Virus record (IMG/VR): IMGVR_UViG_3300037264_005984
Span: 1-34,312 of that record
Source of the DNA: a virus
Length of the DNA: 34,312 nt
Strand: one strand, 5' to 3'
Under the pieces are notes generated by a model. It saw only the letters and a program-made list of their open reading frames with translations. It had not been told where the DNA came from and ran no database searches. The first letter of the stretch is position 1; each line of letters opens with the position of its first letter. Of this stretch, positions 18,505-22,614 are shown piece after piece. The position numbers were made by a program, and so were the translations under genes.

Positions 18505-19662
18505 ATGCTGTACTACCTGCCGTTGGAGCCTCTCCAGGAACGGTACACTTGGCAGTGGAGTGCCCCGATCACTGGTTGGTTGGAAAGGAATTGGATTCGA
18601 GCGGGCATCCCTTACCAAAGGATCGACGGTACCCGCCGTGTGCGGGATTATATCGGGACTGGGGTTGTGTTGGATGCGGTAGCGCGTTCGACGTACTGTT
18701 TCTCTCAGATCGAGCAACTCCTCGAGATCGCAGACCGTGGGTTGTTTCATGATGGAGATGTGATCTACCTGGATGACTTTTGGACACCCGGCCTCGAGGC
18801 GTTGCCATACCTGTTGGATCAGATTGGGGCGAAGGTCAAGGTGTACTCGTTCCTGTTTGCTCAGTCTGTTGATGAGTACGACTTCACTTACAAGATGCGG
18901 AGATGGATGCGACCAATGGAAGTTGGTTATGCGTCCATGATGGATGGGATCTTCGTTGCCCATCCTTTGCTGAAGGAGTTGGTAGTGGGGGGTGGCATTG
19001 CTCCCGAGGACAAGGTGTTCGTTTCAGGACATCCCTTTTGCTCTGAGGAGGTAGCGGAACGAATGCCGTGGCGCAGAGGCCCGTGGGAAATGAAACGACA
19101 GGACAAGGTAGTGTTCAGCAGTCGTTGGGATGACGAGAAGAACCCGCTGTTTTTCCTCAGGGTGGCTGCGTTGGTGAAGAGGTGGCGACCGGAGGCGAGA
19201 TTTGTAATCTGCACAGGGTCTCAGAAAGTGAGGTCGAACAATCACAGCAATCTGGTGAAATTGGCCCAAGCGGAAGCGGATGGGATTGTTGAGGTACGGG
19301 AAGGGTTGAGCAAGGAGGAGTACTACCAGGAGGTTGCCGAAGCCAAGGTGCAGATGAATACAGCTCTCCAAGACTTCGTTCCTCTGACATTGCTCGAGGC
19401 GTCAGTGGCAGGGACGTATCCTGTCTACCCATACTTCCGTTCGTTCCCAGATACGTTCCGGCACATGTCTGAGTATCTCTATCAAGCATTCAATGAGGAG
19501 GCTGCTGCTGCGAAGATCATCGGAGTGCTGAACAGGGATGATCTGTGGACAGAGACAGCGATCGAGGCACGCAGTTGGATCCATACTCGCTTTGATGTTG
19601 CTTGGAAGCGGCAGTTGGTTGTGATGGGATTGCTCGGAGGGAAATTCGATGAGCCGCGGTAA
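18505..19662 (+). CDS. GT-B glycosyltransferase (GT4-like)
   Basis: 385 residues. The second Rossmann domain shows the usual glycosyltransferase group 1 run: DKVVFSSRWDDEKNPLFFLRVAALVKRW, ARFVICTG, the loop EVREGLSKEEYYQEVAEAKVQMNTALQDFVPLTLLEASVAG (donor-binding region, with the family Glu in LLEA) and a C-terminal helix. The first domain has VIYLDDFWTPGLEALPYLL and a GIFVAHPLLKELVV segment. The donor and acceptor are unknown. It lies between the QueD-like and DpdA-like genes with 4 bases to one and 14 bases overlap to the other, so modification of the deazaguanine base in DNA is a reasonable guess; glycan work would be the default. Confidence 0.75.
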   Translation: MLYYLPLEPLQERYTWQWSAPITGWLERNWIRAGIPYQRIDGTRRVRDYIGTGVVLDAVARSTYCFSQIEQLLEIADRGLFHDGDVIYLDDFWTPGLEALPYLLDQIGAKVKVYSFLFAQSVDEYDFTYKMRRWMRPMEVGYASMMDGIFVAHPLLKELVVGGGIAPEDKVFVSGHPFCSEEVAERMPWRRGPWEMKRQDKVVFSSRWDDEKNPLFFLRVAALVKRWRPEARFVICTGSQKVRSNNHSNLVKLAQAEADGIVEVREGLSKEEYYQEVAEAKVQMNTALQDFVPLTLLEASVAGTYPVYPYFRSFPDTFRHMSEYLYQAFNEEAAAAKIIGVLNRDDLWTETAIEARSWIHTRFDVAWKRQLVVMGLLGGKFDEPR

Positions 19663-20536
19663 AGCGATTTTGGATTCAGGTGCTCACACACTCTACACTG
19701 AGGAGGTGTTGAAGAAGGGCAACAAGTTGGCTTTCGGTCGACCGGACAAGGGGACAGGCTTCGGGTACTACGAGACCGATGCTTTCTGGGATTACGTTGA
19801 CAAGTACGGGGAGTTCATCAAGGAGTATGGGCAGGGGTTGGATGCCTTTGTGACTGTGGACGTCATCTTCAATCCTGAGATGTCATGGAAGGTACAGAAG
19901 TATTTGGAGAGAGTGTACGGTGTTGTTCCGCTGCCGGTGTTCCATTGGGGTACAGATCAGAAGTGGTTGAAGAGGTATCTCAAGGATGGGCATCAGTACA
20001 TCGGGATTGGCGGCTTGGGCCAAGAGGTGTCGACAGCCAACTACGTTGATTGGGCGGATCGGTTGTTCTCGTACTTGCAAGGCAGTCAATCCGAGGTTAG
20101 GACGCATGGCTTTGCGATGACCTCATTCTTTCTGCTACGGAGGTACTCGTGGACGTCAGTGGATTCAACAACCTGGGTCGTGTTGGCCGGCTATGGGAAG
20201 CTCTTGATACCGCATCTTCGAATGAATTATGCAAAGGGGAGAGAGGAATTTGATTTCTCAGTGTTCCCATATATTCTTACTTCATCTAACAACGAAGGCA
20301 AGGTGAGGATAAAGAAAGGGTTGGGTTATTATTCATTGTCTGGCTTGGAGAATCGTACTGTAGGTATGTGGTTTGAGAAGATTGGACTTGTGCTCGGGGA
20401 TGACAATGAAGAGGGAGTGAGGAACAAGCACAAGCAACGGTGCATTGCCAACCTGAGGTACTTCCTTGAGTTGGAGAAGTGGTTGAAAACTCAAGAACGA
20501 AAAGTGACACCTCGAGAAAGGTTTGGATTGGTATGA
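19649..20536 (+). CDS. dpdA: DpdA-like DNA guanine transglycosylase
   Basis: 295 residues of a TIM-barrel tRNA-guanine-transglycosylase-like protein. Visible landmarks: ILDSGAHTLYT (9-14 DSGAHT, equivalent to the DSGGFQ loop of TGT), FVTVDVIFNPEMSW (68-80), YIGIGGLGQ (117-125, base-binding GGLA loop), RTHGFAMTSFFLL and SWTSVDSTTWV (167-177) with the likely nucleophile Asp at SVDST. The TGT zinc Cys cluster is not visible, as in phage DpdA. It is expected to exchange guanine in DNA for a 7-deazaguanine. It begins abruptly at the DSGA strand: the N-terminal barrel segment usually found before it is missing and appears to lie in the next small gene. GGAGG precedes the ATG. Confidence 0.82.
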   Translation: MSRGKAILDSGAHTLYTEEVLKKGNKLAFGRPDKGTGFGYYETDAFWDYVDKYGEFIKEYGQGLDAFVTVDVIFNPEMSWKVQKYLERVYGVVPLPVFHWGTDQKWLKRYLKDGHQYIGIGGLGQEVSTANYVDWADRLFSYLQGSQSEVRTHGFAMTSFFLLRRYSWTSVDSTTWVVLAGYGKLLIPHLRMNYAKGREEFDFSVFPYILTSSNNEGKVRIKKGLGYYSLSGLENRTVGMWFEKIGLVLGDDNEEGVRNKHKQRCIANLRYFLELEKWLKTQERKVTPRERFGLV

Positions 20537-20736: not shown

Positions 20737-20872
20737 AGACGTGATCATCACCGTGGTTGAAATCGGACATGACAAGGTGCGGCTAGGTATCGAGGCACCC
20801 AAGGAAGTTGCGGTGCATCGAAGCGAAGTATACGACGCAATCAAAAGGGAGCAGAGTGATGGTATTCATTGA
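20690..20872 (+). CDS. csrA: CsrA-type RNA-binding regulator
   Basis: 60 residues matching CsrA/RsmA over its length: MLVLSRKKGERIRIGEDVIITVVEI, then KVRLGIEAPKEVAVHRSEVYDAIKRE. The RNA-contact residues (R6 region LSRK and the LGIEAP/VHR segment) are intact. CsrA dimers bind GGA motifs in mRNA leaders and repress or stabilise transcripts. The phage copy may shift host metabolism or regulate phage mRNAs with AGGA ribosome binding sites. The start ATG 20690 has GAAAGGA at good spacing; the longer frame from 20672 adds residues not in the family. It ends overlapping the next gene. Confidence 0.95.
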   Translation: MLVLSRKKGERIRIGEDVIITVVEIGHDKVRLGIEAPKEVAVHRSEVYDAIKREQSDGIH

Positions 20873-21374
20873 TCAGATTGTTCAAGACGCGACGGAGAAA
20901 TACAAGGACGATATCAGCAAGGCACTGGATGTGGCAGAGCGTGCATTCTGGAAGCATTCGGATCACGACGAGTTTGTGAGGACGTTGGTGCGAGATCAGT
21001 TGCGTGCCTTGATTCACCAATGCCGGCACATGTCGAATACGGACAGGAAGAAGCGATCTGGAGCGTACGGAGGCAAGGCCAAGGTGAACGTGGGCAACAC
21101 GAAGTCGGTGTCCACGGCACACAGGAATTCGTGGTACGATCACTACATCGACGGCATTACGTTGGGGTCCATGACCGGCAAAGATCTGAAGCGGGCAGCG
21201 GAGAATTCCGGTGCTGCCGCTAATGGGTACTTGTTCAACAAGATGTTGTGTGACGAGTTGGCAAGGATGGTGCCGGACGATCAGACTGTTCGAGACGTCG
21301 TGAGCGAGAAGAAGTTGAACTCCATCGTGGAGCGAAGCCAGAGAAAGTATCAGCTGGAGAAGGCCGGCTGTTGA
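20859..21374 (+). CDS. Hypothetical protein upstream of the guide array
   Basis: 171 residues, largely helical and basic. IVQDATEKYKDDISKALDVAERAFWKHSDHDEFVRTLVRDQLRALIHQCRHM is followed by a flexible stretch with KKRSGAYGGKAKV and a C-terminal helical part. No family recognised. AAAAGGGAG lies before ATG 20859, and the gene overlaps csrA. It ends 6 bases before the first hairpin of the array, so read-through of its transcript would carry the array. A link to the guide system is possible only by position. Confidence 0.6.
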   Translation: MVFIDQIVQDATEKYKDDISKALDVAERAFWKHSDHDEFVRTLVRDQLRALIHQCRHMSNTDRKKRSGAYGGKAKVNVGNTKSVSTAHRNSWYDHYIDGITLGSMTGKDLKRAAENSGAAANGYLFNKMLCDELARMVPDDQTVRDVVSEKKLNSIVERSQRKYQLEKAGC

Positions 21375-21379
21375 ATACG

Positions 21380-21423
21380 AACGGGCGATAATCGTCTTGT
21401 AACCGATACGACGAGTGCCCGTT
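21380..21423 (+). ncRNA. Guide hairpin unit 1
   Basis: Stem AACGGGC/GCCCGTT (7 bp). Segment A TAATCGTCT (21389-21397), loop TGTAACCGA (21398-21406), segment B TACGACGAG (21407-21415). A T-run follows the stem. Confidence 0.8.
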
Positions 21424-21432
21424 TTGAAACAT

Positions 21433-21484
21433 GCAGAGGGGACGATTTCGAAAATGTAATCGATGCCCCCTTTGTCCCCTCTGC
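21433..21484 (+). ncRNA. Guide hairpin unit 2
   Basis: Stem GCAGAGGGGAC/GTCCCCTCTGC, a perfect 11 bp. Segment A TTTCGAAAA (21446-21454), loop TGTAATCGA (21455-21463, one change from consensus), segment B TGCCCCCTT (21464-21472). Confidence 0.8.
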
Positions 21485-21496
21485 TTTGGACACAAT

Positions 21497-21546
21497 GTGC
21501 TTAGACGCCCGATGAAGTGAAACCGACCGCCCCATTGTCTCAGCAC
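21497..21546 (+). ncRNA. Guide hairpin unit 3
   Basis: Stem GTGCTTAGAC/GTCTCAGCAC with one mismatch. Segment A CCGATGAAG (21509-21517), loop TGAAACCGA (21518-21526), segment B CCGCCCCAT (21527-21535). The GA before segment A is GC here, so this unit may be decayed. Confidence 0.75.
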
Positions 21547-21561
21547 TTGAAACATGGGAGC

Positions 21562-21599
21562 AGACGATCGGCGAAGTGTAACCGAGATGACGTTTGTCT
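21562..21599 (+). ncRNA. Guide hairpin unit 4
   Basis: Short stem AGAC/GTCT (4 bp). Segment A TCGGCGAAG (21568-21576), loop TGTAACCGA (21577-21585), segment B GATGACGTT (21586-21594). A TTTTT run follows. Confidence 0.78.
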
Positions 21600-21609
21600 T
21601 TTTGAACTT

Positions 21610-21649
21610 TGGGCGATGGTTCAGTTGTAACCGAAGAGAATCATGCCCA
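21610..21649 (+). ncRNA. Guide hairpin unit 5
   Basis: Stem TGGGC/GCCCA (5 bp). Segment A TGGTTCAGT (21617-21625), loop TGTAACCGA (21626-21634), segment B AGAGAATCA (21635-21643). Its 3' stem lies just before the ribosome binding site of the Nop-like gene, so folding of the unit might affect translation. Confidence 0.8.
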
Positions 21650-21669
21650 TCTATTTGAGGAGCGATTCG

Positions 21670-22446
21670 ATGTTGGTGAAGTCAAAGTCAGTGGCGTCCG
21701 TGTTGAGCTTAGGGTTGCAAGGTCTTCAGCGCGAGAGGAGTTGTTTGCTGAAGAGTCAATTGATGATGGAGAACAGGAGGCGTGCCTACGTGGCCACAAG
21801 CATGGGTTACCATGCTGGGCAGGAGGAGGATGAACGCAAGGAGCAATTCAAGAAATCTGATGAGTACATCAAAGGGGTGTTGGAGAACGGGCCCAGCGGA
21901 GAGCGAGTCGATTTTGTAATCTTAGATCTAACCAGTTCGTTGGCGCCGTTGGTGGGGAGTATTCACAACATTGAGAAAGAGATGGTGAAGGCTGCCAAGG
22001 CACTTCCAGTGTTTGACTGGGCAAGCGACGTCAAGGGATTCGGGATCTTGGGACTGGCCAAGATAATCGGAGAGACGGGTGACTTGGACAACTACGCGAA
22101 TCCTGCCAAGGTGTGGAGGCGAATGGGTTGCGCACCCTTCGACGGACACATGGGCAAGACGTGGAAGATTCCGAAGTGGCGTCCGCGGACGTTGGGCGCA
22201 GACGAGTGGGAGGAGTTTGGCTACTGCGGACGACGCAGGTCGACCATGTTCGTGATTGCAGAGGGACTCGTGAAGCAAAACGACGGAGCCTATCGAACTC
22301 GCTATGATGAAGCGAAGGCCAGCGGATTGATCAAGTGGCCTGAGCACGTGAGCAAGGCCGGAACGAGTATGCACGCCCACATGCACGGGATGTTGCTGTG
22401 CGGAAAGTTGTTGCTCAAGGACTTGTGGATCGCGTGGACGCAATGA
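21670..22446 (+). CDS. Nop/IS110-C-terminal-like guide-binding protein (Tas-like)
   Basis: 258 residues. The N-terminal third is basic and helical (LVKSKSVASVLSLGLQGLQRERSCLLKSQLMMENRRR), a central helix contains IHNIEKEMVKAAKAL, and then come SDVKGFGILGLAKIIGETGDLDNYANPAKVWRRMGCAPFDG and YCGRRRSTMFVIAEGLVKQ, DGAYRTRYDEAK. This last part matches the helix-hairpin-helix region of IS110-family transposases and the related Nop domain of Tas proteins. No RuvC (DEDD) and no HNH motif is visible, so it would bind but not cut. ATG 21670 is chosen for GAGGAG at 21658-21663; ATG 21643 would overlap guide unit 5. It is flanked on both sides by guide hairpins. Alternative: a remnant of an IS110-type transposase, less likely because of the arrays. 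Confidence 0.75.
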   Translation: MLVKSKSVASVLSLGLQGLQRERSCLLKSQLMMENRRRAYVATSMGYHAGQEEDERKEQFKKSDEYIKGVLENGPSGERVDFVILDLTSSLAPLVGSIHNIEKEMVKAAKALPVFDWASDVKGFGILGLAKIIGETGDLDNYANPAKVWRRMGCAPFDGHMGKTWKIPKWRPRTLGADEWEEFGYCGRRRSTMFVIAEGLVKQNDGAYRTRYDEAKASGLIKWPEHVSKAGTSMHAHMHGMLLCGKLLLKDLWIAWTQ

Positions 22447-22449
22447 AAC

Positions 22450-22495
22450 AAACGGGCGAATGATGAGCTGTAACCGATACCTTTGGTGCCTGTTT
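22450..22495 (+). ncRNA. Guide hairpin unit 6
   Basis: Stem AAACGGGC/GCCTGTTT (8 bp, one G-U). Segment A ATGATGAGC (22460-22468), loop TGTAACCGA (22469-22477), segment B TACCTTTGG (22478-22486). The stem begins 4 bases after the Nop-like stop codon. Confidence 0.8.
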
Positions 22496-22505
22496 TTCGA
22501 ACTAT

Positions 22506-22555
22506 GTGCTGAGACGAGCACATGAGTGTAACCGATTATCATATTGTCTCAGCAC
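22506..22555 (+). ncRNA. Guide hairpin unit 7
   Basis: Stem GTGCTGAGAC/GTCTCAGCAC, a perfect 10 bp and nearly the same as unit 3. Segment A GCACATGAG (22518-22526), loop TGTAACCGA (22527-22535), segment B TTATCATAT (22536-22544). Confidence 0.82.
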
Positions 22556-22564
22556 TTGAAACAT

Positions 22565-22614
22565 GGGGGTGGGTGATGGATCGCGTGTAACCGATAACCA
22601 ACCTGCCCACCCCC
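22565..22614 (+). ncRNA. Guide hairpin unit 8
   Basis: Stem GGGGGTGGGT/GCCCACCCCC (10 bp, one G-U). Segment A TGGATCGCG (22577-22585), loop TGTAACCGA (22586-22594), segment B TAACCAACC (22595-22603). Followed by TTTTT (22615-22619), terminator-like. Confidence 0.82.

What the first reader, a model, noticed from the sequence alone, without database searches (positions are those of the whole stretch)
21380..22614. Phage TIGR-Tas-like locus: dual 9-base guide hairpins flanking a nuclease-less Nop-like protein
Eight hairpins all share the layout stem-GA, 9 variable bases, a 9-base loop TGTAACCGA (or one-base variant), 9 variable bases, TG-stem. The exact 9-9-9 spacing holds in every unit while both variable segments differ. 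They flank a gene whose C-terminal region resembles the IS110/Nop helical domain. As I recall the TIGR-Tas description, it involves two 9-base spacers per guide RNA, box C/D-like motifs and a Nop-domain protein related to IS110. Here each unit has its own closing stem and the protein has no RuvC or HNH domain, suggesting guided binding or silencing, not cutting.
Basis: partly seen in the sequence, partly recalled or inferred. Interest (0 to 1): 0.95.

Follow-up and report, generated by a model that had tools for sequence, protein, structure and literature searches.

The report
Phage TIGR-TasA locus with guide hairpins
This virus carries a small RNA-guided DNA-binding system of the recently described TIGR-Tas kind (eight two-part guide hairpins around a nuclease-less TasA protein), and comparison with its relatives adds two things I found no report of: an almost always present partner gene, and guide sequences that are completely exchanged while their hairpin frames are copied.

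Summary
Eight hairpins (21379-21649 and 22450-22614) share stem - box C (CGA) - 9 nt - TG - 4-nt loop - CGA - 9 nt - TG - stem, aligning without gaps; only the 9-nt segments and the covarying stems vary. One unit has CGC instead of CGA. The 258-aa protein between them (21670-22446) is a Tas protein: its AlphaFold2 model's best PDB matches are TasR and TasH, then IS110 recombinases, and it has no room for a nuclease. TasA with stem-loop arrays is already described in the TIGR-Tas paper (PMC12045711), so this is a new member of a known kind, not a new system. Three things go beyond that paper's main text. (1) A second gene (here 20859-21374, 'TasX', not ParB) lies beside tasA in 57 of 70 related loci and co-varies with it. 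(2) Duplicated guide units keep 88% identical flanks while their spacers are no more alike than unrelated ones (28% vs 27%), so spacers are replaced outright. (3) In some relatives guide units lie inside the tasA reading frame. No target was found in the window or in related loci. Most likely role: guide-directed DNA binding without cutting, from one polycistronic operon.

The parts
20859..21374 (+). Companion gene 'TasX' (171 aa, my working name), ATG at 20859
   Evidence: Homologues lie beside tasA on the same strand in 57 of 70 loci; nine loci fetched with TasX queries, three of them new, all carry TasA downstream; profile 98.9% probability match to distant upstream ORFs, 1.2% or less to ParB
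21379..21424 (+). Guide unit 1: spacer A TAATCGTCT, loop repeat TGTAACCGA, spacer B TACGACGAG, 7-pair stem
21433..21484 (+). Guide unit 2: A TTTCGAAAA, TGTAATCGA, B TGCCCCCTT, 10-pair stem
21497..21546 (+). Guide unit 3: box C is CGC; A CCGATGAAG, TGAAACCGA, B CCGCCCCAT; 8 of 9 stem positions paired; flanks 26/28 identical to unit 7
21558..21603 (+). Guide unit 4: A TCGGCGAAG, TGTAACCGA, B GATGACGTT, 6 of 7 stem positions paired
21610..21649 (+). Guide unit 5: A TGGTTCAGT, TGTAACCGA, B AGAGAATCA, 4-pair stem; ends 20 bases before the tasA start codon
21670..22446 (+). tasA gene, 258 aa, Nop-domain protein without nuclease domain
   Evidence: phmmer to TasR 9mty E 2.4e-5; AlphaFold2 pLDDT 81, pTM 0.76; top Foldseek PDB hits TasR and TasH, then IS621
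22450..22495 (+). Guide unit 6: A ATGATGAGC, TGTAACCGA, B TACCTTTGG, 7-pair stem; starts 3 bases after the tasA stop codon
22506..22555 (+). Guide unit 7: A GCACATGAG, TGTAACCGA, B TTATCATAT, 9-pair stem
22565..22614 (+). Guide unit 8: box C TGA; A TGGATCGCG, TGTAACCGA, B TAACCAACC, 9-pair stem

Best explanation
A phage-borne TIGR-TasA system with stem-loop guide array and a companion gene. Shown here: a one-strand cassette TasX - 5 guide hairpins - TasA - 3 guide hairpins; TasA is a Nop-domain Tas protein without nuclease; each hairpin presents two 9-nt spacers between box-C-like (CGA) and box-D-like (TG) motifs; stems are conserved as pairing, spacers are not conserved at all. Inferred from the experimentally studied relatives: the cassette is transcribed as one RNA, TasA dimers capture each hairpin, a host RNase trims the linkers, and each particle binds an 18-bp DNA target whose two halves pair with spacers A and B on opposite strands (order A then reverse complement of B, 0-2 bp gap), unwinding and bending but not cutting it. 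The likely effect is blocking transcription or replication of rival or host DNA. TasX is probably a second subunit or a helper for processing or spacer renewal.
For: Units. Protein. Published precedent, TasA plus stem-loop arrays processed into single hairpins. Target rule and 180-degree bend. The same unit layout was found near tasA across the relatives: 322 units within -3.5/+2.5 kb of tasA against 14 in about 431 kb of further flank; per-locus counts on the tasA strand and the opposite strand are. Stems of units chosen by loop only: 69 of 90 have 6 or more of 7 pairs against 7.5 expected with swapped partners. TasX; TasA and TasX distances correlate, r 0.70 (permutation maximum 0.15, 51 loci).
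Against: No RNA or binding data exist for this locus. No spacer-pair target was found in the window or in related loci; matches in the TIGR order are about as frequent as in three control orders. The TasA family profile alone did not hit TasR or TasH in the PDB by sequence; membership rests on phmmer, fold and the arrays. No sigma-70-type promoter or terminator was seen. Exact scans for two spacer pairs gave 3 and 1 viral contigs, few enough to be chance.
Confidence: 0.9

Rival explanations
1. TasA-guide particles act on RNA: like box C/D snoRNPs they pair the two 9-mers with RNA targets (host or phage mRNA, tRNA or rRNA) and block or mark them.
For: The free-standing stem-loop units resemble snoRNAs more than dual-repeat tigRNAs, and no DNA target was found.
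Against: The studied relatives TasR and TasH act on DNA, and TasR did not act on RNA. Closest folds are TasR, TasH and IS110, with Nop5 and Prp31 only at insignificant E-values. No methyltransferase partner in the cassette.
Confidence: 0.08
2. The hairpins are an IS110-type mobile element: bridge-RNA-like structures used by a transposase remnant.
For: PHROGs and Pfam label the protein transposase-like (phrog_4285 E 3e-10, Transposase_20 below cut-off); IS621 is the next fold after Tas proteins.
Against: The catalytic N-terminal domain of IS110 is absent from the 258-aa ORF, eight units exist instead of one bridge RNA, and neighbours (TasX, arrays) match TIGR loci, not insertion sequences.
Confidence: 0.02
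3. The hairpins are regulatory elements or terminators of a phage operon with no guide function.
For: They sit tightly between genes; several fold well on their own.
Against: Exact 9-9-9 spacing with invariant boxes, recurrence next to tasA across many loci, and spacers exchanged at random between copies with identical flanks do not fit terminators; the terminator scan found none.
Confidence: 0.02

Closest known systems
TIGR-TasA with stem-loop array (Peromyscus leucopus gut contig; PMC12045711)
   Different: Box C is CGA here; the loop is nearly constant in length and sequence; a companion gene (TasX) that the paper's main text does not mention
TIGR-TasR and TasH (dual-repeat arrays)
   Same: Nop fold, two 9-nt (TasR) or 8-nt (TasH) spacers, UG and C-box motifs
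   Different: No RuvC or HNH domain, no alternating edge repeat; each unit has its own stem
TasA-TasParB operons (PMC12045711)
   Same: tasA with a second conserved gene and an array
   Different: TasParB goes with dual-repeat arrays; TasX does not match ParB (hhalign probability 1.2% and 0.3%)
IS110/IS621 recombinases and bridge RNA
   Same: Nop-type RNA-binding domain
   Different: No catalytic domain, no bridge RNA, many units
Box C/D snoRNP (Nop5)
   Same: Nop domain and C/D-like boxes around two guides
   Different: No L7Ae or fibrillarin partner in the cassette; Foldseek match weak (E about 0.9-1.7)

Membership tests
TIGR-Tas, TasA type | Nop-domain Tas protein | tested here: met
   Foldseek top PDB hits TasR (E 3e-5) and TasH (E 1e-4); phmmer to TasR E 2.4e-5
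TIGR-Tas, TasA type | No RuvC or HNH nuclease domain | tested here: met
   258 aa, all-helical N-terminus, no nuclease family found by Pfam or PHROGs
[quoted passage not shown]
   Eight units, 9+9 nt, CGA and TG boxes
TIGR-Tas, stem-loop array | Variable but palindromic stems in place of edge repeats | tested here: met
   Covariation
TIGR-Tas | Spacers variable between units and loci | tested here: met
   Spacer identity at background level even between duplicated units
TIGR-Tas | Array processed into guide RNAs bound by Tas | not testable with these tools
   Needs small-RNA sequencing of a TasA pull-down
TIGR-Tas | Two-strand DNA targeting by spacers A and B | tested here: inconclusive
   No target enrichment in the window or related loci; host unknown
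TIGR dual-repeat array | Alternating edge and loop repeats | tested here: not met
   Only the loop repeat is constant; edges are unit-specific stems
IS110 transposase | N-terminal catalytic domain and bridge RNA | tested here: not met
   Domain absent; eight short units
TasParB (for TasX) | ParB-like sequence | tested here: not met
   hhalign against six ParB-family proteins: probability 1.2% or less; no Pfam match for the window TasX

The most novel reading that the evidence does not exclude
Stem-loop TIGR systems are two-protein systems (TasX plus TasA) that copy guide units as frames and write new 9-nt spacers into them, with TasX taking part in making or renewing guides; in some relatives the effector gene itself carries guide units inside its coding sequence.
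Probability: 0.35. Interest if true: 0.88.

Novelty: new member of a known kind. Interest (0 to 1): 0.6.

Why it matters
How TIGR arrays gain new spacers, and what nuclease-less TasA does, are named as open questions in the TIGR-Tas paper. This class of loci gives a handle on both: a partner gene not mentioned in that paper's main text that can be deleted or purified, and many natural before-and-after pairs in which the hairpin frame was copied and both spacers were exchanged.

Tried and rejected
Single-sequence search of viral contigs found no relatives; the loop-motif scan and a profile did. Self-targeting or targeting of relatives: counts for A+rc(B) about the same as for flipped, same-strand and swapped controls. 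Exact target scans for units 7 and 1 gave 3 and 1 contigs, not followed up, and no control pattern was run. TasX as ParB: rejected. TasX fold: model of low global confidence (pTM 0.46), no significant viral structure match. TasX was not found in isolated phages by tblastn from one relative, though the iterated profile finds it in Rhizobium phage RHph_X2_25. Rfam: no match. No tRNA in the window. Near-identical phages L093-L096 and the 80-87% similar pair L073/L075 were compared in search of recent spacer change; no clean single exchange was isolated.

Full report
What is there. The window is a 34,312-base IMG/VR virus record with no named host. Between 20859 and 22614 lies a cassette on one strand: a 171-aa ORF (TasX), five hairpins, a 258-aa ORF (tasA), three hairpins, then the gene of a polymerase-clamp-like protein. 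A scan for the loop motif alone finds eight sites and no others. All eight units align without a gap: stem, box C (CGA; TGA in unit 8, CGC in unit 3), 9 nt, TG, 4 nt, CGA, 9 nt, TG, stem. Nine of ten stem positions covary; 81% of cells pair against 60% with shuffled partners (0/500) and against 46-58% with slid partners. Unit 5 (4 pairs) and unit 4 (no better than shuffles) are the weakest.

The protein. Best sequence match in the PDB is TasR 9mty, E 2.4e-5. In an alignment with five relatives AlphaFold2 gives pLDDT 81, pTM 0.76, almost all helical with a long coiled-coil-like N-terminal part. The eleven best Foldseek hits are all TasR or TasH (probability 1.00), followed by IS621 and other IS110 structures; Prp31 and Nop5 come later without significance. 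There is no nuclease domain, so it is a TasA.

Known precedent. The TIGR-Tas paper (PMC12045711) describes, besides dual-repeat arrays, stem-loop arrays with variable palindromic stems, box C/D motifs and two 8-12 nt spacers, exemplified by a TasA without nuclease, with RNA pull-down showing single processed hairpins. The window fits that description point by point.

Relatives. A loop-motif scan and a TasA profile brought in relatives: 64 loci from viral contigs and 3 from bacterial genomes in the profile searches. The loop-motif units of the window's clade recur in ten or so loci with the same spacing. A general form of the layout (32-nt core, stem, C-like boxes CCA or CGA, TG or CG box) gives 322 units within -3.5/+2.5 kb of tasA against 14 in about 431 kb of further flank (this search requires a stem). 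Where the stem was not required, 69 of 90 units had six or more of seven pairs, against 7.5 expected when partners are swapped. The Microcystis phage Mvi-JY20 next to its TasA has a dual-repeat array of period about 36, an internal contrast.

Companion gene. The ORF directly upstream of the array has homologues next to tasA in the related loci, whereas the clamp, the tRNA-ribosyltransferase-like and the glycosyltransferase genes of this phage do not. An iterated profile finds it in 57 of 70 loci, near-duplicate contigs included, upstream on the same strand in all but one. Seven of the 13 without a match have little or no upstream sequence; in several others (L062, L064, L103) the upstream ORF looks like a diverged version by eye, which I did not score. 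Searching from TasX instead of TasA returned nine loci, three of them not seen before, all with TasA following. Close and distant TasX profiles match each other at 98.9% probability and neither matches ParB (1.2% and 0.3%), so this is not the TasParB of the paper, which goes with dual-repeat arrays. TasA and TasX distances correlate over 51 loci (r 0.70, best of 999 permutations 0.15), which shows shared history; it does not by itself show a physical complex. [quoted passage not shown] its supplement could not be read here.

Spacer turnover. In the window, units 3 and 7 have 26 of 28 flanking bases in common but 6 of 18 spacer bases. Over all loci 189 pairs of units with nearly identical flanks (mean 88%; loop plus box 87%) have 27.6% spacer identity, against 27.2% for unrelated pairs; several pairs have 28/28 identical flanks. 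Many pairs come from one locus (L070), but the same holds in L047, L050, L055, L058, L065 and L102. Accumulated point mutation would leave intermediate values; the best pair has 10 of 18. So the frame is copied and both spacers are exchanged. The mechanism is unknown.

Guides inside genes. In L047, L053 and L055 complete units lie inside the tasA reading frame, at the variable-length loop just before the GPYR motif in L047, L053 and one of the L055 units, always in the one frame that reads the loop repeat as ...ETD/E and avoids its stop. The window's tasA has no insertion there.

Targets. No match of the TIGR order A + reverse complement of B stands out in the window or in related loci against three control orders. 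The host is unknown, so targets in the host or in rival phages were not testable. The order itself is my reading of the published cut geometry (8-nt 3' overhangs).

Mechanism, with status. Array, boxes, pairing, Tas fold, missing nuclease, partner gene and spacer exchange: shown by computation. One polycistronic transcript: inferred from spacing (unit 1 begins 5 bases after the TasX stop, unit 6 three bases after the tasA stop) and strand. Processing and two-strand DNA binding: inferred from the studied relatives. Blocking of rival or host DNA: inference, as the paper itself suggests for TasA. TasX role: open.

Noticed in passing
L047:3521, L053:8114, L055:8633, 8702, 8765: Complete guide hairpins inside the tasA coding sequence, some directly before a conserved GPYR motif, read in the same frame (peptide ...ET(D/E)...).
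   Followed up: partly
L064:3423-4403: The ORF upstream of tasA looks like a diverged TasX with an ...SSVETQATGARP... stretch that resembles the embedded-guide peptides.
   Followed up: no
L003:5538-5803 (Microcystis phage Mvi-JY20): Dual-repeat TIGR-like array, period about 36, directly after a TasA gene annotated as hypothetical in an isolated phage of known host; no TasX found.
   Followed up: partly
L002:4186-5690 (Rhizobium phage RHph_X2_25): Isolated Sinorhizobium phage with TasX, TasA and stem-loop units in which the TG box is CG; a candidate for target searches with a known host.
   Followed up: partly
L082:8524-8810: Array with period 46 whose edge part is near constant (about TGCCATAAGATTTGGGCC), perhaps intermediate between stem-loop and dual-repeat arrays.
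   Followed up: no
L112 (Falsiroseomonas tokyonensis): TasX-TasA-stem-loop locus with CCA boxes in a sequenced bacterial isolate.
   Followed up: partly
window:15215-17273 and 19649-20536: QueD-like (PTPS), radical-SAM (QueE-like) and GTP cyclohydrolase I genes plus a queuine-tRNA-ribosyltransferase-like gene: probable 7-deazaguanine modification of the phage DNA.
   Followed up: no
window:23575-26179: Uracil-DNA-glycosylase domain and 3'-5' exonuclease domain in one ORF, followed by a separate ORF with DNA polymerase I matches.
   Followed up: no
window:413-2024 and 18505-19662: FkbM methyltransferase, DegT-type aminotransferase and glycosyltransferase genes: sugar-modification cargo.
   Followed up: no
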